The notes beneath the pieces are model-generated. The model was not told the DNA's origin, did no database searches, and saw only the letters and a program-made list of their open reading frames with translations. Positions 1,581 to 51,273 of a stretch of 62,143 bases of DNA are shown here, one piece after another. This stretch comes from a bacterium (GTDB taxonomy: Bacteria; Margulisbacteria; Marinamargulisbacteria; JAHFDA01), in assembly GCA_023249225.1 (NCBI GenBank), contig JAHFDA010000004.1, forward strand, positions 1 through 62,143, read 5' to 3'. Within the stretch, counting starts at the first letter, position 1; every line of letters starts with the position of its first letter. Position numbers and translations under genes: made by a program.

Positions 1581-4500
1581 TTAGCTGGGCTTGGCCTCCT
1601 CCATCAACCTGATATCCACCACCAAGCCATTGACTTCTTTGCTCCAGGTAGAGTAGTTCATCCTAAACGCCAGCTCCACGGGGCGTTCGTTGCGGTGGGC
1701 CTCGTATAAGATTTGCTTAAGGCCGACTGCTGGCTTAAACATCACAAAACGGCGCTCAAAGCCGTCTTCATCAAGGGCATCGAACTGGTAGCTCAAACCG
1801 TCCTTGCCGATTTTTGACCAACCAAGGATTTGCACGTTGCGCACCGCTAAAATGGGGTTGGCCGGACCGTTTTGCATACCTTCGGCACCAAAAGTTTCTG
1901 AATCCCAGGGGGCCAGTGTCTCAAGCAGTCGATAGGCAAACTCATTTAAGGTCTTGGCAGGCACGGTGGCCACAACCGGCACGCGGCGATCCCGGCCCCG
2001 GACCAGGTATTCCTGGCGTTGCTTAGGCTCTTTTTCCTGAATTTGTTCAGCCACCGCCAGTTGAAAGTGCTTCGATAAAAAGGCCAGTTTTGTTTCGCTA
2101 CCTTCAAACTCTGGGCTGGCAAATTCGTGGCGCTCCAAGTCATTGTCGACGCTGGTGTCTAAAAAGTTTCCACCGGCGGCACCCACGTGGCCGCCCAAGC
2201 CGGCAAAAAAAGGTTCGTTGTGTCCGGCCTCGCGCCAGGCGCGTTCCACCCGTTTTAAGGCTTTCAATATATGGAAGCCCGGACGGGTGCGCGCCGAACC
2301 TTTTAAATGCGGGGCGTTGCTGGTATCAAGCACAAACACGGGGCCGCCCACCACCTCGGCCAGGCGCGCTGCCACAATGCCCATGACGCCTTCGTCGTAC
2401 TTGCCGGGCAAGACCAGCGCCGGAATTGATGGGTCGTATTCAAAAGGTTTTTCCTTTTGAATGCGTTCAAAATCAGCCAGAGCCTGGGCGGTGACGGTTT
2501 CGGTCAGCATACGGCGGTTTTCGTTGTTAATGATCATCGCGCGCAAGCGTTTATAAATTTCTTCAGGCCGATCCTCCATAAAATATTCCACCGCCAGTTT
2601 TCCATCACTGATGCGCCCCAGGGCGTTGATCGGCGGAATAAATGAAAAGCCGATAAACTCGCGTGAAAGACTGTCCTGAAAGCGCCAGCCGCGTTCGTAA
2701 CACAAGAGCGCCCATGACAGGTCGATGTCCAGCCCGAGGTCCACGTCTTTTAAAAGCGGAATGGTGTTGTCTGCGCGCAGCAGGTACTTTTCAGGTTCTT
2801 CTAAAAATGTTTTAAGTGTTTCCATGTTGCGGCGAATTTTAATATCGGCGGCCTGTCCAAGGGTTCGGCAGGTGCCTTTGACGGGCACAATGTCGGATAC
2901 GATGGACTGATAGGCGTACTCCAAATACTGGTCTCCAATTTCAAAGCCGGGTTTTCCGGCGGCCTGGTAACGCGCATCCTCGCGCTTGTATAAGGCGCGC
3001 GTGACCATGTAAGCCAGGGCTCCGCCAGACAAAAAGTAATTTTTGTCCTTGGGATTGCGGGTGATAAAGGGGTGCACAATGGCATCGGCCTCGGGCAGCA
3101 GGTATTCATCCGTTTCTTCGCCATCTTCGTTTTTAACCCTTGGAATGGTGTGGTGGTCGGTAATCAAAATCACCGGCTGCGGCAAGTCGTGGGCGCTGGC
3201 AAAGGTGCGGGCTGTGTCAATTTCTTTTTTGTTGCTGATGCCGTTGTCGGTGGTAATAAAGTATCGAAACCCTGCCTGCATCTGGCGCGTCAGGTTGCGG
3301 CTGCGCAGACCGTAACCATCAATGCGGCGGTCGGGGATATAGTAGTCTACCGTGGCATTAAAAATTTCACGTGCTTCGGCGCGGGTTTTTCCGGCGTCGA
3401 TCAAGCGGCGTTCTAAAACTTCGCGGAAGCCTTTCATATATATGGTAGAACCGGTAATGCCATCGGCATCGTAATCGCCCGAAATCATCAAACGCGGCGG
3501 AGCGGTTTGTTTTGACTTTGGGGCGGTCACTACGCTGACCACCGCGTCCATAAAAGTCTCCAGGTGTGACAGGCACTTTTCAATGTCGGGCAGTTCGCCG
3601 TAGCTGTCGAGCAAAGCCAGATCCACTTGATCCTGTCGCAGAGTCTTCAGCGCTTCGACAGATTCAATACCATAGCGTTTTAACACTGGGGCAAAGACCT
3701 GCTCCATTTCGGGCAGAATCTCTGTGCGGCGCGGCCAGGGATCATTGGGCCGCTCGCCTAAGCTGCCCATCAAGGGGCCATCGGCTGAAAACGTGGCAAT
3801 GATTTTTTGCTTGCCCTTGACGCCGGCATCAAATATTTCAAGCAGCTTGTTGCCAAGATCAGACGCAGGGTCTATCTGTGGCAGGTCAAACAAACGCAGG
3901 ACTGCCTGCAAAACCGGAAACTTGATTTCCGAAGCATGGAACAGGTTGTCTGTGGCCTTGCCTTTTTCGGCCAGATCAGCGGTCATTTTGCGCTCGGCTT
4001 GATTCATATTCATGAGGATGGCCTTAAGCGCACCCAATTTTTCGGGTTGGCCTTCGAGCCATGCGATCAGGCCGGCAGGTGTTTCGATGCCAGTGCTCAC
4101 CAGCAAGCCGCGGATAAACCAGTTGGGCAGGTCGTTAAATTCCCTGGCCTGGATATTTTCAAGTTCCGAAACCACCACATCACGTGATTTATCGTCGAGC
4201 AGATGCTTAAAGGCTTTTTCAAGATAAAAGCCCTTGTGCCGCACGCGACGGTAGGGGTCTTTCAATAATTCTTCGTTAATATCCACTGCTTTAAAATGCT
4301 TGCTTTGGGCCTGGCTGGGGGTGTAGCGAAAGATTTTTGAGCGGCCAAACTCGACGCGCATGCTTTCTAAAACAATCCGGTGCATCACGGCGGCAATGGC
4401 GGCTTTGTCTTTTTGAAAGGCGGCATCCAACACAAAATTTTCTGCTTTGCCGATGTCGATAAAGGCTTGCTGAATACAGCCGTCTTCGTCTACGTAAGCC

Positions 4501-7337
4501 TCGCGTTTAAGGTTTTCCCACAAGCCGCGCGGATCAGCCACCACGCCATCAAAGGCGCTCACATCCAGGGCGCCGTAAAGCAAGGCCAGACGCGCCTGAC
4601 GTTCGGCAGCCACAAAGACATCGTCGTTCATGCGGTCTTTGAGATCACGTGGTTCCTCTAACTGCGAAAGTGATTGATCGGCTTCACCCACCATGTCGGC
4701 CATGCGGCGGCCGATTTCTTCATAAACGTGGTCTTCAGTTTTAAGTTCCTGATAGTGTTTGCGCTTGCCTTCGGCGGCCAAGGCTTCAAGATGCTGGTTG
4801 TACTCATCGCGGGTTTTCTTTAAACGGTCGGCGATCAGCTTTCCAAGGCGCTCGTCAACCGCTTGCAAACTACCTACAGGCGCCGGGTGCGGGCCATATA
4901 AAAGCTCGTAAAGCAACCGTTTGGCCACGCGTACATAGCCGCCGTTGTAGGGCGGGTTGGGTACGCCATCGGCTTTGATTTTGCGGACAATTTCCACCGG
5001 ACTTAACTTGGTTTCGTTCAGCAGCAGTTCACGCAGTTCTTTTTTGTTTTCGTAACGCAAAAAGAACCAGTGCGCAATTTCCTCCGGATCCGCGTTGCCT
5101 ATGTCTTTGGCCATTTCAACATAAAGGTCACTCGGAATATGCTCCCGTTTAAAAAAGTGTGCGGTGTCTTCGGCAAATTTCTCAAGCAGTTGCTCGGCTT
5201 GCTCGGAACTGATGCGCTTCCACGCCAGGGCCTTTTCAATACGTTCGTTGGCATCATTCACAAAGGTTATTTTTTCTTTTTCGTCAAAATCGGCCTGGTC
5301 GCCGTCCCTAAAGAACAGACGCCAGACATGGTCTGGGTTGCCAACCAGTTCCGGGCCCAAAAGGGTCTCGATTTCGGTCCGGTCGCGGCCACTGACGCGT
5401 AGGGCCTGGTTGAGGCGGCGTAAAAATGGTTTTTTACAGGGTTCAATGACTTCGGCATCCAAAAGACGTAAGACCTGCTCATGAAACTCGGCCGAAACGG
5501 TTGGAGATTTGGGTACTTGCGGTATCCAGCGGCTTGCTTGTGTAGGCAATACGGCGAGGTAGGCTTTAAGGTCTTCTTCCATGACCAGCGAAAAAGCACT
5601 CAATTTGGGGGCTGCCACGGCCAATGCTACCGACAGTGACATTTTGTTTCTTTCAGGATTCCAGTTGTCGATCACCAGTCTTTCGCGCAGGCGCGGTGCT
5701 TCTTCGGTAAGTGAGCGACGACGGCCCTTGCGTATGCTGGTCAGCGCTTCCTTTTTTAGCAAGTCCACCGCATCGGCCGCCAGGGCGTCTGCATAACGCG
5801 CGCGTTCTTGTGCCCGCAGGGTGGCCAGTAAGGCGCGTAGCGCTTTGACCTCGCCTTTATAAGCCGATAATTTTTCAATTTGCTCCACATGGCGCGGGTT
5901 GTACTTGGCAATGGTGTCCTGGTCGATGATGCGCAACCATTCGTCAAGTTCCACCAAAGCCACCAGCGTGTCATGCGCTATGGCCGACTCTGCCAGCAGT
6001 GCCACGCAAGGTTCGAGCTTAGCTTTAAAATAAGTAGCTTTGGCGAAGGGTAGGGCGGGCTGCTCCAAAATACGTGCAAGGTTGGCACGGATGCTGGCCA
6101 GGGTCTGCTGCGTCTCGGGGCCGAGTTCGCTAAGTTTTTCAGACGGTTTTAAATCTTTCAGTTTGTAACTGCGCTTGCTGTGCATATAGGCGTAAGCCAG
6201 GGTGGTGGCTTCATACAGCAGCGTGCGGTCGGCGTAAGCGTCAAGTTCGTACTGGGGCATGATGCGCTCCACGAGCAACAGCGACTCGCGCAGGCCGCGG
6301 CCAAAGTGCGCCGGTTCCTTCTGTAACATAACCTGCTGCGTGCGCGGGCGTTTGAGCACGCGTTCGCGAAAAGTCTGGTATTCCGGCAGGTTATGCAACC
6401 AAAAATCCATGGCTTCTTCGGTAATTTCTTCTGAAAGTTGGGTTAAATGGTGATAGGCATTCTCCCTTGCATCTTTAATGGTTTCGCCACGGATGGGCAC
6501 CACCGCATTACGCTGCCCGGCCAGGTAATCGGCTTGGCTGACGATAAAATCAATCAGGCTGTTCGTGGAACGGATAGGTGTTCCGGCCCAACGGCCCTGA
6601 TGGTAATACGCGGCGCGCGTGATATGCAGGGGCCACTGGTTTTTTTGCATTTGTTTCCATTCGGCGGCTGTCAGACCATAGGCTTTAGGATTTTCGCCGA
6701 TTTTAATATTGAGTTTGGCCAGCCACTGACCCCCCACCACTGAATGGTCGTAGGTGGTGTGATAACCCCATTCGGGCTCGCCGTCTGGACCAATAAAGCC
6801 GCCTTTCCACACGTCATGAAGCAATCCGGCAGCAATGGCCTGGTCTTTTTCGGCCGGCGGCATACCGTAAAGATCCGAAAGTGCAATGGCCATGCGCATC
6901 ACGCGTGGTTCGTGTAGATAGGCCTGGCCAGTAAAGCTGACTTCATCGGGCGGGTGATATTTGCCGCCCGTTGACGAGGCCGAGAGCCAATGTTGCGGCA
7001 CCAGTTGGTTGAGCACGGCGGCAGTGTATTTGCGGACGGCGATGTTCTTAATTTCTTTGAGATATTCCTCGTAATACAGCAGAGGATCAATGACAAAACG
7101 GCACTTACCCTTGCGCTGTAGCATGATGGCCCCGATGAAATCCTTAAACCCCAGACGCTGCACATCAAGCAGGATGCGTTCCTTTTCTTCGGTAGAAAGC
7201 GTGGGATCAAGCTCGACGGCCTTAAAACCGCGCTCGTGCATAAAGCGGTTGAGTTCCGGCGTTACCGGATAGACGCCGTCCGCCGGATGTTGATAACAGG
7301 GGTCAGAAAACGAGGCCAACTTAAAAAAAACATTCAT
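1581..7337 (-). CDS. Giant HD-domain / RecJ-like DHH exonuclease fusion (1918 aa)
   Basis: N-terminal HD-type metal-dependent hydrolase: LLHD at residues 172-175, further His in GYHTTYDHS (193, 198), a later YYHQGRW and SQADYL. Residues of about 300-1220 are predicted-helical, charged and of no family I recognise. The C-terminal 700 residues are a full RecJ-like single-strand nuclease: GDYDADGITG (about 1285), TTDNGIS, ITDHHTIP (about 1392), the DHHA1 element GLGGHVGAAGG (about 1717), and an OB-like tail with a LAPW element. All catalytic Asp/His of the DHH core look intact. RecJ is normally about 570-600 aa. The start is ATG with AAAGGAAG upstream, 15 bp after the PLD-like gene, so the two are probably co-transcribed. 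Nucleic-acid processing is likely; whether repair or defence is not shown by sequence. Confidence 0.85.
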   Translation of the reverse strand: MNVFFKLASFSDPCYQHPADGVYPVTPELNRFMHERGFKAVELDPTLSTEEKERILLDVQRLGFKDFIGAIMLQRKGKCRFVIDPLLYYEEYLKEIKNIAVRKYTAAVLNQLVPQHWLSASSTGGKYHPPDEVSFTGQAYLHEPRVMRMAIALSDLYGMPPAEKDQAIAAGLLHDVWKGGFIGPDGEPEWGYHTTYDHSVVGGQWLAKLNIKIGENPKAYGLTAAEWKQMQKNQWPLHITRAAYYHQGRWAGTPIRSTNSLIDFIVSQADYLAGQRNAVVPIRGETIKDARENAYHHLTQLSEEITEEAMDFWLHNLPEYQTFRERVLKRPRTQQVMLQKEPAHFGRGLRESLLLVERIMPQYELDAYADRTLLYEATTLAYAYMHSKRSYKLKDLKPSEKLSELGPETQQTLASIRANLARILEQPALPFAKATYFKAKLEPCVALLAESAIAHDTLVALVELDEWLRIIDQDTIAKYNPRHVEQIEKLSAYKGEVKALRALLATLRAQERARYADALAADAVDLLKKEALTSIRKGRRRSLTEEAPRLRERLVIDNWNPERNKMSLSVALAVAAPKLSAFSLVMEEDLKAYLAVLPTQASRWIPQVPKSPTVSAEFHEQVLRLLDAEVIEPCKKPFLRRLNQALRVSGRDRTEIETLLGPELVGNPDHVWRLFFRDGDQADFDEKEKITFVNDANERIEKALAWKRISSEQAEQLLEKFAEDTAHFFKREHIPSDLYVEMAKDIGNADPEEIAHWFFLRYENKKELRELLLNETKLSPVEIVRKIKADGVPNPPYNGGYVRVAKRLLYELLYGPHPAPVGSLQAVDERLGKLIADRLKKTRDEYNQHLEALAAEGKRKHYQELKTEDHVYEEIGRRMADMVGEADQSLSQLEEPRDLKDRMNDDVFVAAERQARLALLYGALDVSAFDGVVADPRGLWENLKREAYVDEDGCIQQAFIDIGKAENFVLDAAFQKDKAAIAAVMHRIVLESMRVEFGRSKIFRYTPSQAQSKHFKAVDINEELLKDPYRRVRHKGFYLEKAFKHLLDDKSRDVVVSELENIQAREFNDLPNWFIRGLLVSTGIETPAGLIAWLEGQPEKLGALKAILMNMNQAERKMTADLAEKGKATDNLFHASEIKFPVLQAVLRLFDLPQIDPASDLGNKLLEIFDAGVKGKQKIIATFSADGPLMGSLGERPNDPWPRRTEILPEMEQVFAPVLKRYGIESVEALKTLRQDQVDLALLDSYGELPDIEKCLSHLETFMDAVVSVVTAPKSKQTAPPRLMISGDYDADGITGSTIYMKGFREVLERRLIDAGKTRAEAREIFNATVDYYIPDRRIDGYGLRSRNLTRQMQAGFRYFITTDNGISNKKEIDTARTFASAHDLPQPVILITDHHTIPRVKNEDGEETDEYLLPEADAIVHPFITRNPKDKNYFLSGGALAYMVTRALYKREDARYQAAGKPGFEIGDQYLEYAYQSIVSDIVPVKGTCRTLGQAADIKIRRNMETLKTFLEEPEKYLLRADNTIPLLKDVDLGLDIDLSWALLCYERGWRFQDSLSREFIGFSFIPPINALGRISDGKLAVEYFMEDRPEEIYKRLRAMIINNENRRMLTETVTAQALADFERIQKEKPFEYDPSIPALVLPGKYDEGVMGIVAARLAEVVGGPVFVLDTSNAPHLKGSARTRPGFHILKALKRVERAWREAGHNEPFFAGLGGHVGAAGGNFLDTSVDNDLERHEFASPEFEGSETKLAFLSKHFQLAVAEQIQEKEPKQRQEYLVRGRDRRVPVVATVPAKTLNEFAYRLLETLAPWDSETFGAEGMQNGPANPILAVRNVQILGWSKIGKDGLSYQFDALDEDGFERRFVMFKPAVGLKQILYEAHRNERPVELAFRMNYSTWSKEVNGLVVDIRLMEEAKPS

Positions 7338-7352
7338 AAACGGCTTCCTTTC

Positions 7353-10300
7353 TTACTTGCTTTTAGTCTCTGGGTCTGACAGGGCATCGGTCTGCGCGGG
7401 GCGAATGTCTTTGACAATCAGACCGATGTTAAAACTGTGTTGGCAAGCGTCACTGGCATCGCTGCTGGCGGCGCTAAGGCGCTGGACACTAAATAAAATA
7501 TCTGCCGCTTGCCCCGATTTGCGCGCAGCATGGATCACACGGCGCATGTCCGGACGGTTTCCGTTATAGATGATGGCCTGGTAGCAATGATCGGGGTGTT
7601 GTGGGTGCGCAAGTTTTAGCAGCACATGCTGTCCGTGCCCCACAATGCGGTAATTTTCGATGGCAAAGCCCCGGCTCATAAACTGGGGCGACTGATGAGG
7701 CGCTGTTTTTGAGCGCAGCAACCAGGGGCCACATAGTTGCACCAGCATGGCCAAGGTGGGTGTCACGGCGCCGGCATCGAGCTCAAGGTAGTAATCAAAC
7801 GGTCGTTCAGAGGCCGCCAGGGGATGGGCCGAGATAGGCGATTCCAAAGCGCTGCTTGAAACAACGGTCACGGTTTGACCCAGCAAAATCGCGGCTTTTT
7901 GCGCCACGGCTTCCAGGGTTTCGGTGGGCCAGTTGCCCGCAAAACGCCGTGTAGAAAGATTGCTGTGTTGGGTATCAAACTGGTACATCAACTGAAACTT
8001 GGGCATCTGATCGGGGTGGCTGGCCCATTGCTGAATGCCACGGGCGATTTCACTGCTTAAGTGTTCCACGTCGATATCGCGCTGGGCGATGTTGTAAAAA
8101 CTGATCAGGGCGTTGAGCTTGTTCGATGATTTCAGCATCATCAGCACATCTTCGGTGCGGTTTTGCCGGATGGCGCGCTCCAGGAAATGAGTCAGCGAGT
8201 GATAAGCCCGCAACTCGTCGTGGTGGTCAAAGTTGCGCAATACGTCAACGTAATCAAGACCCGGAATATTGCCAACCGTTTCGAGCTGGCGGATGCCCCA
8301 CAAATAAAATAAAAACGTGTCGCGTGCTTTCATCTCTTCATGCGCAGCGGCGGCTAACGCGAAGAGCGCCAGGCCGCTCTTGCCCAAAAATTCCTGGCCA
8401 TCCGGCAGATGCCACAGCAGTCTGGGCAGTGATTCAAAATCGACCGCCTGGCTTTGGATATCCAGCGCAGCCGATTTGGGGCTGGCAGGCGTAATGGTCA
8501 TGTGAATGGCATTCGCAGGCACTTTAGGAGCAAGCTCAAAATTGACGTCCACGCCCTGGCCTTCGATCCAGCGCCAGGCCATGACTCCTGCGATCACTGA
8601 TTCAAGACTGGCGTTTATTTCTAAAGTAATGACGCTGTGGTCTTCTTTGGCAGCAGCCACCATGCGCTTGACGGCTGCAATGGCAGGTTGACTGGCCCAA
8701 GCTGCCGACAGGGTTGCCAGTTGTTCCTGGGCGCTTTGCAGGGTCACAATACCGATTTCCTGTAAGTTGGTTTCGTTAAGGGTACCGTGGATGCGCAGCA
8801 ATTCAAGCAACATACGGGCTTCAGCGACCGGCTGATTTTTGGGCGCAGCGGGCAAGCCATGTTTCTCGCAGAACTCGCGAATTTTATTTTCGGCGGGCTC
8901 ACGCTCACCCAAATTAGCATCCAAAAGCAATTTTTTGAGTGCCGCGCGCGTGGGGGCCTCAAGCGTTTTGAGTTGGGTTTGCAAGGCTTCAAAGCTTAAA
9001 TGGCCCAAAACCTCGGCCAGGACCAGGTAATGCAAATCCGAAATTTTTTCGCCTTCCGCAGCGCTGCCATCGGATAAGAACTGCAGCAGGCGCTGGGCTT
9101 CTCCGCGCAACCAGGTCTGGTAAATAGTCTCGCCCCGTACCTTTTGGTTGCGCGTCAGCAATTTGTGCAACACCAGTGTATCCACCGATCGTATGCCCGC
9201 CAGTCCCTGCGGCAGGGGGACGACGTTCCACGTGGGAGCAACGCCCACATGATCGCGCAACAAGGTTTCAAATTGCTGGGGCAACACCATGCGATGACCC
9301 AGGCGTTCTTCAAGTTGTGGCCATTGCGAGGCCAGGTGGGTGATGAGGTATTGCAAGCCTTTTTTCGAAGTGAGTAGCGATTTTTCGGTGGCTTTGCCAA
9401 AGCTTTCTTCTACCAGCTGGATAAGCGCCTGTGCTTGTGGTTTAGACTCCAGGCTGGCCTTCCAATCCGTCAGTTTATGTGCCCGGTCCGGACTATCAAG
9501 TGTGAGCAGATACTGGCGCAATAGGGCCGCTGCCATGATCAGGCAGGCGTCTTCTTCTGAAAAAACGGGGGATCCCTTGGTGCTTGTTTTTGTCCGGTAC
9601 AGGCGGGTAAGTAGATCCGCAAAAGTCAGCACTTGCAGCTGTTCGGGCGAACACGCTTCCCACGATGTCAGACCGATTAATTGCAGCAGCGCGTCAAGCA
9701 GTTCAGCCGGAGCCGTAGCTAATACATCCAAAGCATGCCGCTCCACATCGGGCGATGAACTGTTGATCCAACGCAGCGGCAAAGTTTTAAGTTGCGGCAG
9801 CGGAAAATCCTTGTCGCGCAGCGTGACATGCGTATAAATCACCTTGCCGGACGATATGTGTTCGGCAAGGCGCAGCAAGGCGCTTTGGTCGGACGTCAGC
9901 GCCGCGAGGCTCTTGTTCTTGTCCAAGCGTCCGATCAGCGCATGGGCCAATAAGAGTTCAGTTTGGGTGCGGTCGAGCGAACAATAGTCGCACAGCAGTT
10001 TGGCCCATAAAAATCGCCGCCGCCGGTGCAGTGAATGTCCGCAGATGGTGTCTTCATCCACCGGATTCTCCACCGGTGATGGTTGGATAAACACCTTGTC
10101 GTCAACCTTGTTAAGGATATCCACGACGCAGTTCTTCAGGGCTGGATCGTGCAGCTCGGCCAGCTCGGTTTCAAAAAATCCGGCCCGGTCGATTTCCAGT
10201 TCAAATTCGGGGTGCTGATCCGCCAGGCGGCGTAAAAAGAAAAACGATCCATCGTCCACCGTCTCCAGCGCCAGTTGCAGCAGGTTGGCGGTGCTCACCG

Positions 10301-11045
10301 TGGCCCGGTCGGCAGTGCTGTAGTTAATCGAAACAATGCGGCTGTTGCGCAGGTAGGGGTTGCGGACGCTCTGGGGATCCAGAATAAAACGAAACTTCCC
10401 TGGAACGCGGTGGCGTTCGTAAAGCTGAAAAAACTTGCGCCGCAAGTACTGAACGCTTTCGGGGCTGATATGTTTTCCCATCACCAGGCGTGTGGCCAGT
10501 TCTACATTTTTAAATTGTCCGCCATAAGAGAGGTTGCTCGAGCCTTCGTGTACGATGGTTTCTCCAGAGTGGATGTCACTGACAAGGGTAGACTTAATAT
10601 GCATCGATCCGCCGCTTAAACCTTTGGCCAGCACCCAATGCAGTTCAATGTTGGGATGCTCTTTTTTAGCTGCTTCCAGCATTTTTAACACCGAGTTGTC
10701 ACTCATGGCCTGCTGCTCCTCGTCGAGCACCAGGTACACCGCGCCACCACGGCGGGCCGCGTCGATTTTCTCGCGCATCAATTCACGGTCGGTAAACGAA
10801 AACATGACCGTCAAAATTTCGGGTTTTGGAAAACGGCGCAGGTCACGAATATAGCGCGCCTTAAACTGCTGATAATTCACAGGCCGATGCGGATCGTTCA
10901 TCAAAAAAGGATGTTCATCGGCTTCGGTAAAACTTGGAAAGTACAGTGTGCGGCTGGTGTGACCTGCAAAATCCAACCGGTGTAATGCGGGTGTGGCAGT
11001 GTGCTTTAAAAGTAAAGAAAACAGGACATCAGCAACCGCACACAT
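7353..11045 (-). CDS. Large protein with N-terminal single-HKD PLD-like nuclease domain (1230 aa)
   Basis: Residues of about 75-205 form a phospholipase-D-like domain: HIK at 149-151, followed after the usual spacing by GSSNLS (168-173), the HxK...GSxN signature. Only one HKD motif is evident, as in dimeric Nuc-type nucleases. The remaining 1000 residues are helix-rich and unrecognised. It is the first gene of a two-gene minus-strand unit with the HD-RecJ fusion. The GGAAAGGAAA Shine-Dalgarno lies about 24 nt before this ATG but only about 10 nt before an out-of-frame ATG that would encode a 16-residue peptide, so start usage is uncertain. PLD-like domains can be nucleases, phosphodiesterases or lipases; the RecJ partner favours nucleic acid as substrate (inference). 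Confidence 0.75.
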   Translation of the reverse strand: MCAVADVLFSLLLKHTATPALHRLDFAGHTSRTLYFPSFTEADEHPFLMNDPHRPVNYQQFKARYIRDLRRFPKPEILTVMFSFTDRELMREKIDAARRGGAVYLVLDEEQQAMSDNSVLKMLEAAKKEHPNIELHWVLAKGLSGGSMHIKSTLVSDIHSGETIVHEGSSNLSYGGQFKNVELATRLVMGKHISPESVQYLRRKFFQLYERHRVPGKFRFILDPQSVRNPYLRNSRIVSINYSTADRATVSTANLLQLALETVDDGSFFFLRRLADQHPEFELEIDRAGFFETELAELHDPALKNCVVDILNKVDDKVFIQPSPVENPVDEDTICGHSLHRRRRFLWAKLLCDYCSLDRTQTELLLAHALIGRLDKNKSLAALTSDQSALLRLAEHISSGKVIYTHVTLRDKDFPLPQLKTLPLRWINSSSPDVERHALDVLATAPAELLDALLQLIGLTSWEACSPEQLQVLTFADLLTRLYRTKTSTKGSPVFSEEDACLIMAAALLRQYLLTLDSPDRAHKLTDWKASLESKPQAQALIQLVEESFGKATEKSLLTSKKGLQYLITHLASQWPQLEERLGHRMVLPQQFETLLRDHVGVAPTWNVVPLPQGLAGIRSVDTLVLHKLLTRNQKVRGETIYQTWLRGEAQRLLQFLSDGSAAEGEKISDLHYLVLAEVLGHLSFEALQTQLKTLEAPTRAALKKLLLDANLGEREPAENKIREFCEKHGLPAAPKNQPVAEARMLLELLRIHGTLNETNLQEIGIVTLQSAQEQLATLSAAWASQPAIAAVKRMVAAAKEDHSVITLEINASLESVIAGVMAWRWIEGQGVDVNFELAPKVPANAIHMTITPASPKSAALDIQSQAVDFESLPRLLWHLPDGQEFLGKSGLALFALAAAAHEEMKARDTFLFYLWGIRQLETVGNIPGLDYVDVLRNFDHHDELRAYHSLTHFLERAIRQNRTEDVLMMLKSSNKLNALISFYNIAQRDIDVEHLSSEIARGIQQWASHPDQMPKFQLMYQFDTQHSNLSTRRFAGNWPTETLEAVAQKAAILLGQTVTVVSSSALESPISAHPLAASERPFDYYLELDAGAVTPTLAMLVQLCGPWLLRSKTAPHQSPQFMSRGFAIENYRIVGHGQHVLLKLAHPQHPDHCYQAIIYNGNRPDMRRVIHAARKSGQAADILFSVQRLSAASSDASDACQHSFNIGLIVKDIRPAQTDALSDPETKSK

Positions 11046-19450: not shown

Positions 19451-19930
19451 ATGAAAGCAGCGCAATTTAAAATTTGTATCGTGCGCAGTTGTTTTAACCC
19501 AGACATCACTCTGGGTATGCAAAAGGGAGCCCTACAGGCCTTGCAAGCAGGCGGTGTCTCATCTGGCCAGGTCACGGTATACGAGGTTCCGGGTGCCTTC
19601 GAAATTCCGGCCTTGGTGAAGATAGCGCTGGCAAGTAAAAAATTTCATGGTGTGCTGGCGTTGGGGGCTGTGATCCGTGGTGAAACCCAGCATCATTATT
19701 TCATCAGCCATGCGGTCACCCAGGCATTGATGGACATGACACTGCATAGTGCGGTGCCGCTTGCCTATGGTGTCATCACGCCCGAAAATGACCGGCAAGC
19801 CCAAGCGCGTTCATTGGGTGCCCTGAAAAATAACAAAGGTTGGCAGGCTGCCGAGGCGCTGCTCTCCCAGATGGCGCTGTATGGTAAACTAAAAATTGCT
19901 TCAGCTCATCAAGCAAAGTTGGGAAAATAG
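19451..19930 (+). CDS. ribH: 6,7-dimethyl-8-ribityllumazine synthase
   Basis: 159 aa; condenses the RibBA products into lumazine. VPGAFEIP, ALGAVIRGETQHHYFI (with the catalytic His) and GVITPEN..QA are family signatures. Start set at ATG 19451, four nt after the ribBA stop; a longer in-frame version would lie inside ribBA. The ABC ATPase gene follows after 10 nt. Confidence 0.93.
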   Translation: MKAAQFKICIVRSCFNPDITLGMQKGALQALQAGGVSSGQVTVYEVPGAFEIPALVKIALASKKFHGVLALGAVIRGETQHHYFISHAVTQALMDMTLHSAVPLAYGVITPENDRQAQARSLGALKNNKGWQAAEALLSQMALYGKLKIASAHQAKLGK

Positions 19931-19940
19931 CAAAACTTTT

Positions 19941-21044
19941 ATGGCAGGTGTGCGTCTACAGAATGTAACAAAGCGCTTTGGCGACCTTGCGGTGGTCAAA
20001 GATTCTAATTTCGAAGCCCGTGATCATGAGTTTATTGTCTTGGTAGGTCCATCGGGCTGTGGTAAAACCACTACCCTGCGCCTGGTGGCGGGTCTCGAAG
20101 ATGTGACGGACGGACGAATTTTTATTGGCGACCGTGACGTTACAGACATGCATCCCAAAGACCGTGATATCGCCATGGTTTTTCAAAACTATGCGCTCTA
20201 CCCGCACATGAATGTCTATGACAATATGGCCTTTGGACTCAAGATGCGAAACTTGGGGCGCGAAGTGATTCGCGAACGCGTAGAAAACGCCAGCCACATT
20301 TTGGGACTTGAAAACCTTTTAAAGCGCAAGCCGCGCGAGCTTTCGGGCGGTCAGCGCCAGCGGGTTGCGCTGGGGCGGGCCATTGTGCGGCAGCCGGCGG
20401 TGTTTCTCATGGACGAACCGCTTTCTAACCTGGATGCCAATTTGCGTGTGGCGATGCGCGGCGAACTTAAAAAAATTCACCAGCGCTTGCAGGCCACGGT
20501 CATTTACGTAACGCATGATCAGGTCGAAGCCATGACGCTTGGGAACCGCATTGTGATCATGAAAGACGGACTGATTCAAGCAGCCGATGATCCCATTGTC
20601 ATTTACGACCGGCCAGGAAATATTTTTGTGGGCGGTTTTATTGGATCGCCACCCATGAATTTTTTGCGGGGCCAAGTGCGCAAGGAAGATCGTAAATTTG
20701 TGTTTGATGCCGGTAGTTTTAAAGTCTGGCTTCCAGTCGACTTGTACGAACACCTTGAAAACATGCAAGAGCGTGAATTTGTGTTGGGAGTGCGTCCCGA
20801 AGATATCCTCGACCGGCGCACGGCCGAACTGCAAAAAAAAGATTACAACATCATGAACGCCAAGGTTGAGTTTTCAGAGGTCTTGGGGTCCGAAAACTAT
20901 CTGCATTTATCGCTGGGAACGCAAAAGTTTATCGCCAAGGTCGATGCGCATATCAACCCTTTGCCGGGGGATCACGTTGAAATTGCCATGGATCTGCATA
21001 AGATGCATTTGTTCGACCCAGAATCCACCCAGGTTATTATTTAG
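19941..21044 (+). CDS. ABC transporter ATPase, MalK/UgpC family (orphan)
   Basis: 367 aa. Walker A GPSGCGKTT (36-44), Q-loop VFQNYALYPHMNVYDN, signature LSGGQRQRVALGRA, Walker B VFLMDEPLSNLD and H-loop YVTHDQVEAM, followed by a C-terminal TOBE/OB regulatory domain (GFIGSPPMNFLRG, VLGVRPEDI) that defines the sugar and glycerol-phosphate importer ATPases. No permease or binding-protein gene lies nearby, so it probably serves transporters encoded elsewhere. Start chosen at ATG 19941 after the ribH stop. Its end overlaps the convergent hpt gene by 8 nt. Confidence 0.92.
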   Translation: MAGVRLQNVTKRFGDLAVVKDSNFEARDHEFIVLVGPSGCGKTTTLRLVAGLEDVTDGRIFIGDRDVTDMHPKDRDIAMVFQNYALYPHMNVYDNMAFGLKMRNLGREVIRERVENASHILGLENLLKRKPRELSGGQRQRVALGRAIVRQPAVFLMDEPLSNLDANLRVAMRGELKKIHQRLQATVIYVTHDQVEAMTLGNRIVIMKDGLIQAADDPIVIYDRPGNIFVGGFIGSPPMNFLRGQVRKEDRKFVFDAGSFKVWLPVDLYEHLENMQEREFVLGVRPEDILDRRTAELQKKDYNIMNAKVEFSEVLGSENYLHLSLGTQKFIAKVDAHINPLPGDHVEIAMDLHKMHLFDPESTQVII

Positions 21045-33683: not shown

Positions 33684-36600
33684 ATGAACAATCGATCCGT
33701 GGCCGCAACTGGTGATACCTCCAAAGTGAATTTCGATGGCACCCTGGGCCGTTACGTAGCTCTGGTGGCTGCCCGCGCCGACCGCACGAGTGCGCGCACG
33801 CGCTTTGAGTTGGAGTTGCGCCCGACAGTGAACTGCGAACACGTGCTGCCGGCCGACAACCTCAAGTTCATTAAAAAAGTAGCCGAAACGCCTGATAAAC
33901 CGGGCAAGGATGGCAAGCGCGTGTTGCAAGTGCTACTCGACCTTGAAGACGCAGTGGCGCCAACCAACAAGAATGCTGCTGTACCCATCCTGATTGAGGC
34001 GCTGAACACCATCAACTGGGGCGGCAAAGTGGTCAACTACCGACCCAACAACACGCGCACCGAATGGAACCCGCGCGATTTGATTGAAGTCATTTTTAAC
34101 GCCGGCCAAAATATCGATGGCATCATGGTGCCCAAGGTTTTTGGGCCCGACGAATTGGTAGAAGTGCGCCGCGTCGTCCAATCTATTGAACGCCACATGG
34201 GTTGGCCCGAGGGACGTATCAAGGTGATGTGTCTCATTGAACTGGCCGAAAGCATGGTGCGTACGCCCGACATCGGCAAAGTGGTGCATGGCTTCAGCTT
34301 TGGCGTGGCAGACTATACCGCCGATGTGCATGGTCACCCCAGCGCACAGGAAGAACAATTTACCCACCATATCGGGCCAAAAAAACGCGTGACCGGGGTA
34401 GCCCGGGCCAACGGCATTACGGCCATCGATTGCATTACGCTTAACGTCAAAAGCCGCGACATCACCCGCGAAGACGCGCTGAAATCCGCGGAGGTTGGCT
34501 TTAACGCCAAGTGGTCGCTGCACCCCACGCAGATTGATGCCATTCAGGAAGACGATATCGAGTGGCCCGCCAGTGTTTATACTCGTGAAGCCCGTCCGTT
34601 GGAATTCAAGGACAGCGAATACCTGACGCTCGAAAAGTTGGCCGAACTGGCCAGCGCCTCAAAGCCGCTGGTTGAACCCGAAAAGGTTACCCCCCGCCAC
34701 CAAATTGCCCGCCGTGGCGCTTACATATATAAGAGTGGCGACGACTTTGCCGCTCTCGCCGGAGCCGATGTGCTGTACTTTGACTTTGCCGACCGTGCCA
34801 AAGCCAAAGAATTTGCGGAAAGCGCAGATTACAAGGGTCAAAAGATTTCCTTACGTGTGGCTTCGGGCGACGCGGCCCATACGCTCGACCAGGGCGACGA
34901 CATTATCAAGATGTTGCGCCCATGTCTCGATGCCTCGCTTCTATCTGGCGTTGTTCCCGCAAAAGCGCGCGCGTTGATGTTTTCTAATTCCGAAGCCACT
35001 TCAGGCCTACTGTATTTTCTTCCGAAACCTAATGTAAAAGCCATTCAGGACCGGGCCCAATCGGGCATGTCGGGTTCCCAATTGAAAAAGTTGCAAGCGC
35101 TTTGGGATGAGGCCATTGCGCGCTCATCCAAGAAACTGGGCACCGCCCTGGATTCCATTTCCGTCGGCGCAGTCACCAGCCACGCTGACCTTGCTTATTG
35201 GGAAAGCGTTTTGGAAGATTTGCCCAACGTGTACCTTGAAGCGCAGGTCAACGAGCCGCTCGGTGTCGACGCCATGCGCGCCATTGTGGATGGCTCCAAA
35301 GCCAAATCGGATCGCCTGACCACCCTGGAATTAAACACGCCTGTTTCCCATGCGCTGGATGAAGCCGGTTACGAGTTGCGCGGAAACTTTTTGGCCGTGG
35401 CCCGTTATGGCAACCTGGACGCTTTGGAACATTTTTCCGCAGGTGCCACGCTTGCGGATGTCAAAGACCGCACCATTACCGGTTTGGACGGCGGGGTCAC
35501 GCGTAGTTTAGAAGTGCTGCCAACGCTGATCCAGGGTTTTTCCCCCACCGCGCTCGAAATTGCGCGCGGCATCGACGTGGCCGTGCAGTACCGCATTGCC
35601 GACGAGCGCGACCACAAGGGCGCCATTGCGTACAAAGATTACCGGAACGTCACTTTCAAAAAAGGCAATCCGAAAGATGAAATTACTGATGCTGCCACGG
35701 TCAAGATCGACCTGGCCCGTCTGGCCCTGGCGTACAGCGCCAATTTAATGACCCGCCAGCAGCGTTGGATCTACGAAAACTTTATCCGTCCCTACTACAA
35801 CCACATGGGCGAGTCGCAGCCGCTCGAAAACAACCCGTATGCCAATGACTACGACATCGGCGCGCGTTTTGTGGGCCAGCCGGTGCTGGTGACTGATGCC
35901 ATGGTGCACGCCTTCGCCAAACTTTCGGATGATCGCAACAACTACCACCTTGATCAGGCTTATGCCGATGCCTCGCGTTACAAGGGCCGCATTGTGCATG
36001 GCATTTTAAGCACGGGTATCACGCTGTCATCCTTCCAGGCGCCGGGACCGGACTACGGGCTGCAGTCGCTTAAAATTCTCGGATACACCGCGGCGGTGCC
36101 TATCGGAACAGCGGTCATTCCCGAAGCCACAATCATCGCCAGAGATGATTCCAAAAACAAAATGTTTCCCGCCTACACCATGCGCCTGGTGGCCCGCAAC
36201 GACAAAGGCGCCATGATCTTTATGGCCGAAGCGGTGTTTGAACACGCCGAAGGAACTTATCCGGATCTGTTTACTCCGGCAGCGGTCGAATATCAGGGTC
36301 AGCCCAGCGAGGATGTTTTAAATCCATTCAGCAAGGATGTTCAACCTTTCACACCGCGCAGTGCCCAGCAGCATACCGTGGGCCAGCAGTGGACAAGAGA
36401 AGTTCAACTGGGTCTGGATGAGTTCGTGGCCGCCGAGGTCTTGTTTGGCATCTCACCGTATCAAAACGGTCTCATGGCTATGTCCCTGATTGCTGGCAGT
36501 TCGGCCAACCATGTGCCGGGTTACATTTTGATCGGTTCCACGCTGACCCATGCCGGTGAAATCAGCCCCAGCGACAAAATCACCATGACCAGCACCGTGA

Positions 36601-36713
36601 CCGCCGTCAAAACCACCAGCGAAGGCAAACGCATCGTGGATGTGGAAATGGTCGGGACTAACAAGTATGGTGTGGTGGTAAAGGGCAGCGTATCCAAAAT
36701 TGAAGATAGATAG
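33684..36713 (+). CDS. Malyl-CoA lyase (HpcH/CitE) - MaoC hydratase fusion (1009 aa)
   Basis: Residues of about 40-330 are a CitE/Mcl-type TIM barrel: LLDLEDAVAPTNK, YRPNNTRTEWNP, DGIMVPKVFGPDEL, CLIELAESM, SFGVADYTADVHG, SLHPTQID. Residues of about 340-690 look like a second, degenerate barrel of the same kind (VLYFDFADRAKAKEF, NVYLEAQVNEPLGVDAMR). Residues of about 720-1009 are double-hotdog MaoC: LVTDAMVHAFAKLSDDRNNYHLD (Asp/His dyad), YKGRIVHGILSTG. In the ethylmalonyl-CoA pathway separate proteins hydrate mesaconyl-CoA and cleave methylmalyl-CoA to glyoxylate and propionyl-CoA; here both activities appear on one chain. AAAGGAG upstream of the ATG. Confidence 0.85.
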   Translation: MNNRSVAATGDTSKVNFDGTLGRYVALVAARADRTSARTRFELELRPTVNCEHVLPADNLKFIKKVAETPDKPGKDGKRVLQVLLDLEDAVAPTNKNAAVPILIEALNTINWGGKVVNYRPNNTRTEWNPRDLIEVIFNAGQNIDGIMVPKVFGPDELVEVRRVVQSIERHMGWPEGRIKVMCLIELAESMVRTPDIGKVVHGFSFGVADYTADVHGHPSAQEEQFTHHIGPKKRVTGVARANGITAIDCITLNVKSRDITREDALKSAEVGFNAKWSLHPTQIDAIQEDDIEWPASVYTREARPLEFKDSEYLTLEKLAELASASKPLVEPEKVTPRHQIARRGAYIYKSGDDFAALAGADVLYFDFADRAKAKEFAESADYKGQKISLRVASGDAAHTLDQGDDIIKMLRPCLDASLLSGVVPAKARALMFSNSEATSGLLYFLPKPNVKAIQDRAQSGMSGSQLKKLQALWDEAIARSSKKLGTALDSISVGAVTSHADLAYWESVLEDLPNVYLEAQVNEPLGVDAMRAIVDGSKAKSDRLTTLELNTPVSHALDEAGYELRGNFLAVARYGNLDALEHFSAGATLADVKDRTITGLDGGVTRSLEVLPTLIQGFSPTALEIARGIDVAVQYRIADERDHKGAIAYKDYRNVTFKKGNPKDEITDAATVKIDLARLALAYSANLMTRQQRWIYENFIRPYYNHMGESQPLENNPYANDYDIGARFVGQPVLVTDAMVHAFAKLSDDRNNYHLDQAYADASRYKGRIVHGILSTGITLSSFQAPGPDYGLQSLKILGYTAAVPIGTAVIPEATIIARDDSKNKMFPAYTMRLVARNDKGAMIFMAEAVFEHAEGTYPDLFTPAAVEYQGQPSEDVLNPFSKDVQPFTPRSAQQHTVGQQWTREVQLGLDEFVAAEVLFGISPYQNGLMAMSLIAGSSANHVPGYILIGSTLTHAGEISPSDKITMTSTVTAVKTTSEGKRIVDVEMVGTNKYGVVVKGSVSKIEDR

Positions 36714-49536: not shown

Positions 49537-51273
49537 CTACGGCAACTGCATCTGGTATATAACCAACTCGTCCCCGTCCTGCACAAGCTGATATATTTCT
49601 CCGCCGGCCACGGTGGCCGAAAGCAAATCCACGCTCGCGGCAAAGGGACTGCTTGCATACTGATATGTATCCGTCGCCGCATCAAAGCCCACCAGCAAAC
49701 GTGCATCCGCAGTGCTATCCCAAAAGTTAAAATAAATCTTTCCGTCCTGCGCCACCGTGCCTTCGTGTTCGGCGTCATAAAGCATGGGGTATACGTCAAT
49801 GCCCCGCACCGCAAAACGGAACTCGAGGTCGGAGCTGCCTGGCCAGCGCAGCCACCACTCGTAGAGGCCATAGTTGTAATCTGCAGTCTCAGTGTGAATG
49901 GGGTAAACAAGATTTGCTCCGGCTCCATCTGCTCCCCAGATTTCCGGAAACATGTCCGTGTTCAGCTGACTGCCTTCCACTGTTCCATCGGCATTGATCA
50001 GGGCATACTGCATTTGCGCGGTGCTGGCATTCGGATTGCGCAGCAACAGCTGGTCATCCAGGCCCACTTGGAAATAACTGTTTGTGGAATAACTGGAGTT
50101 GTAATCCGGTACTCCGGCCAAAACATCTGCCCCAGTCAAAGTGACCATCGAGCCGTCCTCCACGTTAAACCTGCTATACAGTGCGGAGGAATAATTGGAA
50201 TTGCTACCCTGCAGAATCCATAGATAAGGGTTATCGAAGCCCACCATCTGCGGCCCGCCAGTCGAACCAAGATCGGTACTCTGCGCCAGCGTGGCAGTGC
50301 CGGAACCTGTATCCACCGTATACGCCTCAAGATCCTGAACATCCCAGCCGATGCTTATCCGCGCATAGCCCAGCTGGCCGTCCGTTGTCTCGAACAGCCG
50401 CGCACCGTACAAATAATACGGTGCCGCCACACGATAAACTTCCGTTGTCGTTGCAGACGTCGTAAAGGGTGTCAGGTATTCAATGCCGAACATGGCTTTG
50501 AAGAAGTCATATTTAGCTTGCGTATCAGCACTGTCTGCCGCCGTATGCAAAAAGGAGAGCGGATGGTTACGGTAATACTCCACGCCGTAAGCCCAGTCTT
50601 CGCTGTAATTACGGGCGGCGTCACCCGTCACAAAATCGCTGCCGGTTGTGTCGGTGTTCTGGGTGGAATAAGAATAAGTCGGATCCCATGAGATATTCAA
50701 GAAATCCGTCAAATCAGCGCCATGACGGGTGATGCTGTAAGCGTAAACGTGCGCCATCTGGTGATCCATGACCTGCAACAGATCCGACGGGTAATATTCG
50801 TAAAAGTTGTCGAGCACAATAATGTATCCATCGCTGGAATCGGAAATTTGCACGCAGCCATATTCGCCCGGCAGGGAGCAGTATGCCGCTGAATTGTCTA
50901 CAAAAGCTACCGCCAGCACATGATCCGTAAAAAAGGGATCGACACCTTCAAAGGCCTGCATTTCGCCACACACCACGGTGTTCACTTCATCTGCCAGCGC
51001 GGAACCATCGTTGTTAAAGATGTACGCACCAGCGCTGATCAGGTCGCAATCGTAATCGGGTTCAACCGTGGAACCGGTGTCTGCCGGAACAGTATCGGTT
51101 ACCGTAGAACTGCTGTCACCAGCCGAATCACTTGCTGTGTCAACATCACCAGTAGCGCTTTGGTTACTACCCTTTGAGTTTTCAACGGGTGGATTACAAG
51201 CCACCGCAAAGGTTAAAAACGTGAGTGCCCTCCAGGGACGCAGTGCAATGGAACGGAAAATAATGGCGCTCAT
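49537..51273 (-). CDS. Outer-surface or periplasmic lipoprotein, unknown domain
   Basis: 578 aa. Signal peptide with lipobox TFAVAC (Cys26), then a low-complexity Ser/Thr/Asp linker (TASDSAGDSSSTVTDTVPAD) like those of myxobacterial surface lipoproteins, then a domain of about 500 residues that is Tyr/Asp/Ser-rich and beta-rich in its second half, possibly a propeller (GYARISIGWDVQDLEAYTV, LVGFDAATDTYQYAS). An MAHVYAYSITRHG stretch could belong to a metallopeptidase-like part but no full HExxH is seen. AAAGAGG precedes the ATG. Single gene, divergent from the queuosine-salvage gene. Function unknown. Confidence 0.75.
   Translation of the reverse strand: MSAIIFRSIALRPWRALTFLTFAVACNPPVENSKGSNQSATGDVDTASDSAGDSSSTVTDTVPADTGSTVEPDYDCDLISAGAYIFNNDGSALADEVNTVVCGEMQAFEGVDPFFTDHVLAVAFVDNSAAYCSLPGEYGCVQISDSSDGYIIVLDNFYEYYPSDLLQVMDHQMAHVYAYSITRHGADLTDFLNISWDPTYSYSTQNTDTTGSDFVTGDAARNYSEDWAYGVEYYRNHPLSFLHTAADSADTQAKYDFFKAMFGIEYLTPFTTSATTTEVYRVAAPYYLYGARLFETTDGQLGYARISIGWDVQDLEAYTVDTGSGTATLAQSTDLGSTGGPQMVGFDNPYLWILQGSNSNYSSALYSRFNVEDGSMVTLTGADVLAGVPDYNSSYSTNSYFQVGLDDQLLLRNPNASTAQMQYALINADGTVEGSQLNTDMFPEIWGADGAGANLVYPIHTETADYNYGLYEWWLRWPGSSDLEFRFAVRGIDVYPMLYDAEHEGTVAQDGKIYFNFWDSTADARLLVGFDAATDTYQYASSPFAASVDLLSATVAGGEIYQLVQDGDELVIYQMQLP

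What the first reader, a model, noticed from the sequence alone, without database searches (positions are those of the whole stretch)
1581..11045. Two-gene giant cassette: single-HKD PLD protein plus HD-RecJ fusion
A 1230-aa PLD-like protein and a 1918-aa protein with an intact HD domain, 900 unknown residues and an intact RecJ-type DHH/DHHA1/OB nuclease are 15 bp apart on one strand. RecJ is normally a 570-aa single-purpose repair exonuclease; I know of no described system with this architecture. Three hydrolase active sites in two very long chains resemble the build of multi-gene defence or DNA-end-processing systems.
Basis: partly seen in the sequence, partly recalled or inferred. Interest (0 to 1): 0.78.

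Follow-up and report, generated by a model that had tools for sequence, protein, structure and literature searches.

The report
Paired giant nucleases, one part-decayed
One little-known bacterium carries two neighbouring genes for very large proteins: one joins two kinds of DNA/RNA-chewing enzyme that probably work from opposite ends of a strand, and the other looks like a partly dead version of it with a third, nuclease-like domain added; this build is not described in the literature I could search, and what it does in the cell is untested.

Summary
Two intact minus-strand genes lie 15 bp apart: a 1230-aa PLD protein (P2, upstream) and a 1918-aa HD + ~900 aa + RecJ protein (P1). A normal 567-aa RecJ sits elsewhere in the genome, so P1 is an extra.

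Two things were not in the finding. (1) P1's HD domain belongs to a ~200-aa HD subfamily (PHROG 5889), mostly phage-borne and lying among phage DNA-replication and recombination genes. Its profile and its predicted fold both match YhaM, a 3'-5' exonuclease of ssRNA/ssDNA, best among solved structures. P1 therefore probably joins a 3'-5' and a 5'-3' exonuclease. (2) P2 carries a degenerate copy of the same HD domain (p~2e-7; His-Asp dyad lost) and a RecJ-type OB segment (p~1e-7) in the same order as P1. The pair looks like an active and a partly dead subunit of one nuclease complex, comparable to archaeal RecJ3/RecJ4. The DHH core of P2 could not be detected, so a full pseudo-RecJ is inference.

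No relative of either protein was found in 74 phylum-mates, ~380 domain-wide genomes, or plasmid and phage records. A defence role has no contextual support. New variant of a known kind; function unproven.

The parts
7353..11045 (-). P2, 1230 aa: PLD domain + degenerate HD + uncharacterised region + RecJ-type OB segment; first gene of the operon
1581..7337 (-). P1, 1918 aa: YhaM-type HD + ~900 aa unknown + intact RecJ (DHH, DHHA1, OB); second gene
7338..7352 (-). 15-bp intergenic gap GAAAGGAAGCCGTTT with Shine-Dalgarno-like AAGGAAG
10431..10820 (-). PLDc_2 domain of P2 with one HKD motif (H149, K151, Asp displaced to D157; GSSNLS); the only PLDc_2 match in the genome
   Evidence: PADLOC DrmC model E 5.8e-10
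9804..10190 (-). Degenerate HD domain of P2 (res 286-414); HD dyad replaced (LLHDVTKG in a phage relative, ALIGRLDKN here)
   Evidence: profile p 2.1e-7, 5.1e-7 without P1; 500 shuffles at most ~3 bits vs 16.6; direct BLAST to phage HD L076 E 3e-7
7716..8648 (-). P2 res 800-1110: the position where a DHH/DHHA1 core would lie; resemblance by eye only, statistically not detected
   Evidence: negative
7398..7697 (-). RecJ-type OB segment of P2 (res 1117-1216)
   Evidence: profile p 1.4e-7, 1.8e-7 without P1; Pfam RecJ_OB E 3.6e-4 on the isolated fragment
6408..7124 (-). HD domain of P1 (res 72-310), PHROG 5889 / YhaM type; all invariant residues of the subfamily kept (H142, H174-D175, H198, H246, D270)
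3738..6407 (-). P1 res 311-1200, no family match
2703..3497 (-). DHH domain of P1, catalytic motifs intact
2148..2690 (-). DHHA1 domain of P1 (YDEGVMGIVAAR, KGSAR, GGHVGAAGG)
1584..2090 (-). C-terminal OB domain of P1 (divergent)

Best explanation
The operon encodes two large related subunits of one nucleic-acid-degrading complex. P1 is the catalytic subunit. Its C-terminal RecJ module should degrade ssDNA 5' to 3'. Its N-terminal HD module, of YhaM type, should degrade single strands 3' to 5'. A ~900-residue region of unknown fold joins them. P2 is a partner with the same HD...RecJ-OB order in which the HD dyad is lost; it probably acts as scaffold and ssDNA-binding subunit, and it adds a PLD-type nuclease domain that, having one HKD motif, would need to dimerise to work. 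A P1-P2 assembly could therefore trim or destroy single-stranded ends of both polarities. Shown: domains, catalytic residues, degenerate HD and OB in P2, operon layout, separate ordinary RecJ. Inferred: complex formation, polarity and substrate of each site, that P2 res ~800-1110 is a decayed DHH core, and any physiological role (end-processing in repair or recombination at least as likely as attack on invading DNA).
For: P2 matches the HD-subfamily profile (16.6 bits, p 2.1e-7; 15.4 bits without P1) and the RecJ-OB profile (17.5 bits, p 1.4e-7); best of 500 shuffles 3.1 and 3.8 bits; 37 other window ORFs show nothing. Direct alignment of P2 294-414 to a phage HD protein E 3e-7, with the HD dyad lost. 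HD subfamily profile: best solved match YhaM 9h3f E 2.7e-9 over its full length. AF2 model of the P1 HD (pLDDT 79): top PDB fold match again YhaM, the only listed one with TM above 0.5 (0.55/0.61, probability 1.00). YhaM degrades ssRNA and ssDNA 3'-5' (PMC11347170). The subfamily keeps H...HD...H...H...D; an extra histidine is described as a mark of polynuclear phosphodiesterase HD enzymes (PMC8177086; applying it to this subfamily is mine). Phage members sit beside DnaB-like helicase, RecD2/ExoV helicase and SbcC/SbcD-like genes. In two unrelated bacterial genomes a free-standing member is encoded directly next to a DHH/RecJ-like gene. Precedent: H. volcanii RecJ3 (active) and RecJ4 (active site lost) form equimolar complexes (PMC10470531).
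Against: The DHH/DHHA1 core of P2 is not detectable by profile or global hhalign, and the single-sequence AF2 model failed (pLDDT 34.6). P1's HD alone does not hit YhaM by sequence; the link runs through the subfamily profile and the model. P1 and P2 are not significantly similar to each other directly, and P2's HD is nearer to phage HDs than to P1's, so they need not be simple duplicates. No relatives, so no test of conserved linkage. Complex formation is not tested.
Confidence: 0.5

Rival explanations
1. Anti-phage or anti-plasmid defence module: P1/P2 degrade invading DNA, with the PLD domain making the first cut and the two exonuclease sites finishing.
For: PLD domain closest to the DISARM nuclease DrmC in PADLOC (E 5.8e-10); HD subfamily mostly phage-borne; three hydrolase domains, very large orphan proteins.
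Against: No ATPase, helicase, sensor or methylase in the operon; neighbourhood is housekeeping; native codon usage and no composition shift; no plasmid or phage relatives of the whole proteins. DrmC is described as dispensable and one of many non-specific PLD nucleases (PMC9142583), so the match is weak evidence.
Confidence: 0.25
2. Repair or recombination end-processing factor of this lineage, an auxiliary RecJ working beside the standard one.
For: RecJ active site complete; OB domains in both proteins; resident genes with native codon usage; phage HD relatives lie in replication/recombination modules.
Against: A standard RecJ is already present and no relative in the phylum has the extra system, so it is not a core lineage function.
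Confidence: 0.35
3. The HD domain is a nucleotidase that removes the phosphate from dNMPs released by the RecJ site; P1 is a salvage machine from DNA to nucleosides.
For: HD superfamily contains dNMP phosphatases such as YfbR (PMC8177086); RecJ releases dNMPs; in a prophage-like contig one member follows a thyX-like gene (by eye).
Against: Nearest solved relative by sequence profile and fold is the exonuclease YhaM, next the ssDNase HD of Csm1; extra conserved histidines fit phosphodiesterases.
Confidence: 0.2
4. The proteins act on RNA (YhaM-like turnover), not DNA.
For: YhaM acts mainly on RNA in vivo (PMC11347170); archaeal RecJ3/4 associate with aRNase J (PMC10470531).
Against: Bacterial-type RecJ modules with OB domains are ssDNA exonucleases; TIGR00644 recJ is the best NCBIfam model (E 1.2e-47), though below its curated cut-off.
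Confidence: 0.15

Closest known systems
Bacterial RecJ (COG0608, TIGR00644)
   Same: DHH, DHHA1, OB order and all catalytic residues in P1
   Different: P1 is 1918 aa with an N-terminal HD and ~900 unknown residues, scores 162 against a cut-off of 397 bits, and coexists with a standard RecJ
YhaM/Cbf1 3'-5' exonuclease
   Same: HD subfamily sequence profile and fold of P1's N-terminal domain
   Different: No OB domain found before the HD; fused to RecJ; similarity is remote
Haloarchaeal RecJ3/RecJ4 and other active/inactive RecJ pairs; Cdc45
   Same: An active RecJ-family subunit with a partner that has lost active-site residues
   Different: Bacterial, 2-3 times larger, HD and PLD domains added, partner's DHH core not detectable
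DISARM DrmC and other single-HKD PLD nucleases (Nuc, BfiI, NucT)
   Same: One PLD domain of DrmC type in P2
   Different: Part of a 1230-aa protein; no DrmA/DrmB/methylase alongside; HKD aspartate displaced by one residue
HAD-DHH-HD gene clusters (L096, L097)
   Same: Same HD subfamily encoded beside a DHH phosphoesterase
   Different: Separate small genes; DHH of archaeal-RecJ-like type, no OB match; beside sugar-nucleotide-type genes in one case

Membership tests
RecJ ssDNA exonuclease | DHH and DHHA1 catalytic motifs I-VII | tested here: met
   All residues present in P1; not found in P2
RecJ ssDNA exonuclease | C-terminal OB domain | tested here: met
   P1 by profile-profile, weak by Pfam; P2 segment p 1.4e-7
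RecJ ssDNA exonuclease | Full-length score above the NCBIfam recJ equivalog cut-off | tested here: not met
   162.4 bits against 396.9
RecJ ssDNA exonuclease | 5'-3' ssDNA exonuclease activity | not testable with these tools
   needs assay
YhaM-type HD exonuclease | HD subfamily signature and fold | tested here: met
   profile E 2.7e-9, fold TM 0.55/0.61, invariant residues kept
YhaM-type HD exonuclease | OB fold N-terminal to HD in the same chain | tested here: not met
   P1 has only ~90 residues before the HD, no OB match there
DISARM | DrmA helicase and DrmB (DUF1998) in the operon | tested here: not met
   two-gene operon flanked by housekeeping genes
PLD nuclease | HKD motif HxK(x)4D | tested here: inconclusive
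   H149, K151 present, Asp displaced by one
Active/inactive RecJ pair (RecJ3/RecJ4 type) | Partner is RecJ-fold with lost active site | tested here: inconclusive
   OB detected, DHH/DHHA1 core not detected
Active/inactive RecJ pair (RecJ3/RecJ4 type) | Physical complex of the two subunits | not testable with these tools
   needs co-purification

The most novel reading that the evidence does not exclude
A previously undescribed bacterial nuclease machine made of two giant related subunits, one with live HD (3'-5') and RecJ (5'-3') sites and one in which both modules have decayed to a scaffold that gained a PLD nuclease: a bacterial counterpart of the active/inactive RecJ pairs of archaea, with opposite-polarity exonucleases in one chain.
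Probability: 0.35. Interest if true: 0.8.

Novelty: new variant of a known kind. Interest (0 to 1): 0.6.

Why it matters
If right, one protein carries exonuclease sites of opposite polarity, a combination for which I found no description, and its partner shows in bacteria the same path (duplicate or borrow, then lose catalysis and become a scaffold) that gave Cdc45 in eukaryotes and RecJ4 in archaea. It also gives a first functional lead (YhaM-type exonuclease) for PHROG 5889, listed as of unknown function, which occurs in SPO1-like and many uncultured phages.

Tried and rejected
Housekeeping RecJ: rejected, a standard 567-aa RecJ lies at G000:C13. Recent mobile acquisition: not supported, same GC and native codon usage, no plasmid or phage relatives of the whole proteins. 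Chance HD or OB match in P2: rejected by shuffles, reversal and control ORFs. Significant DHH core in P2: not found; an eye-made alignment (P2 805-840 to the motif I region) is not claimed as evidence. AF2 of P2 815-1230 as a single sequence: useless (pLDDT 34.6), and the fragment began about 12 residues late. An alignment of P2 with ordinary RecJs for AF2 was made but looked misregistered and was not used. Designed-motif search of genome contigs (LHD[VLI]WKGG, [IV]SGDYDAD): 19 loci, all ordinary RecJs; distant fusions lacking these 8-mers would be missed. Direct P1-P2 similarity: not significant. The organism could not be named: its genome carries no name here.

Full report
OBSERVATION. The two ORFs are real, intact and in tandem on the minus strand: P2 (7353-11045, 1230 aa) then P1 (1581-7337, 1918 aa), separated by GAAAGGAAGCCGTTT with a ribosome-binding-like AAGGAAG. 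Pfam confirms PLDc_2 in P2 and HD, DHH, DHHA1 in P1; RecJ_OB is weak in P1 but profile-profile alignment to ordinary RecJs runs through it (E 4e-37). The metal and nucleotide ligands of D. radiodurans RecJ (PMC4846377) are all present in P1. P2 has one HKD motif, with the aspartate one place late. Codon usage correlates 0.97 and 0.96 with the rest of the window and GC is flat, so these are resident genes of this genome (2.83 Mb in 121 contigs, 97% complete, 2.7% contamination).

NOT THE HOUSEKEEPING RecJ. The genome has a standard 567-aa RecJ on contig C13. None of 27 class members has the fusion and none of 74 phylum members has P2. Domain-wide samples of 286-383 genomes gave no relative of P2, of P1 as a whole, or of the HD+middle part beyond the HD itself. 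Phage and plasmid records gave only the RecJ core of P1 and nothing for P2. The scan of ~85,000 species genomes was limited to two 8-residue motifs and returned ordinary RecJs only. So the system is very rare or very fast-evolving; true absence elsewhere is not shown.

WHAT THE HD DOMAIN IS. The search with P1's HD+middle region found small HD proteins in two unrelated genomes, each encoded directly beside a DHH gene of archaeal-RecJ-like type, after or fused to a HAD phosphatase. The same HD subfamily is found in SPO1-like phages (gp32.6) and in 21 IMG/VR contigs; it is PHROG 5889, of unknown function (P1 E 1.8e-11). An alignment of P1 with these shows ten invariant residues, all kept in P1. 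Searched against PDB sequences, the profile's best match by far is YhaM (2.7e-9 and 3.6e-7), next Csm1/Cas10 HD (0.005). The AF2 model (pLDDT 79) has YhaM as best solved fold, TM 0.55/0.61, although the Foldseek E-value is only 7.7e-3; phage HD proteins match better (5.8e-8). YhaM is a 3'-5' exonuclease of ssRNA and ssDNA (PMC11347170). Neighbours of phage members include a DnaB-like helicase, a primase-like protein, RecD2/ExoV and SbcC/SbcD-like proteins. The straightforward reading is a nucleic-acid phosphodiesterase.

WHAT P2 IS. A profile of the HD subfamily hits P2 at 286-370 (16.6 bits, p 2.1e-7 for one sequence). Without P1 in the profile it is 15.4 bits (p 5.1e-7), and after also dropping the two DHH-linked bacterial members 14.7 bits. 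The best of 500 shuffles is about 3 bits, reversal gives nothing, and 37 control ORFs of the window give nothing. BLAST aligns P2 294-414 to the phage protein of L076 at E 3e-7; at the dyad, LLHDVTKG is replaced by ALIGRLDKN, so metal binding is presumably lost. A RecJ-OB profile hits P2 at 1117-1163 (17.5 bits, p 1.4e-7; 1.8e-7 without P1; shuffles at most 3.8 bits), and Pfam RecJ_OB gives 3.6e-4 on the isolated fragment. Thus P2 carries the two ends of P1's architecture, in order, behind a PLD domain. The stretch between (about 800-1110), where a DHH/DHHA1 core would be, gives no significant match, and its single-sequence AF2 model failed. A decayed RecJ core there is a reasonable inference from position and the flanking OB segment, not a result. 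P1 and P2 are not demonstrably each other's nearest relatives: direct comparison is not significant and P2's HD is closer to phage HDs.

MECHANISM. Shown: architecture, catalytic residues, decay of the P2 HD dyad. From established biochemistry of the families: RecJ 5'-3' on ssDNA; YhaM 3'-5' on ssRNA/ssDNA; single-HKD PLD nucleases act as dimers (general knowledge). Inferred: P1 and P2 form one complex, P2 being scaffold and ssDNA-binding partner, as H. volcanii RecJ4 appears to be for RecJ3 (PMC10470531) and as inactivated RecJ homologues are thought to be in archaeal replication (PMC3307487). The physiological role is open. Context argues against a defence island, the PLD-DrmC match is weak evidence (DrmC is dispensable and generic, PMC9142583), and the absence of relatives prevents a linkage test.

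NOVELTY. Literature searches for YhaM-RecJ fusions, RecJ-HD-DHH and RecJ-PLD systems returned nothing describing this build; the library is open-access only. I rate it a new variant of a known kind: the parts are known enzymes, the combination and the live/decayed pairing in bacteria are new. Interest is held down by a single occurrence and the undetected core of P2.

Noticed in passing
L096 4949-7201 and L097 919-3152 (genomes G141, G282): HAD - DHH (archaeal-RecJ-like) - HD gene clusters in two unrelated genomes (HAD and DHH fused in one of them); in G282 beside a sugar nucleotidyltransferase-like gene. Function unknown.
   Followed up: partly
L075-L093 (IMG/VR contigs), L063/L064 (SPO1-like phages): PHROG 5889 HD proteins, listed as unknown function, look like YhaM-type exonucleases and several sit in phage replication/recombination modules.
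   Followed up: partly
L098 4264-5489 (genome G308): Prophage-like contig with an HD-subfamily gene directly after a thyX-like gene (RHR motif, by eye).
   Followed up: no
L092 1811-4927: 1039-aa viral-contig ORF with an intein (Intein_splicing, LAGLIDADG_3) close upstream of an HD-subfamily gene.
   Followed up: no
window 19896-21044 (+): 382-aa ATPase, probably RecF-like, that scores 5.3e-28 with the PADLOC mad3 model; likely a generic SMC/RecF-type match rather than a defence gene.
   Followed up: no
window 33684-36713 (+): 1009-aa ORF joining an HpcH/HpaI-aldolase/citrate-lyase domain and a MaoC-like domain.
   Followed up: no
window 49537-51273 (-): 578-aa ORF without any Pfam match.
   Followed up: no
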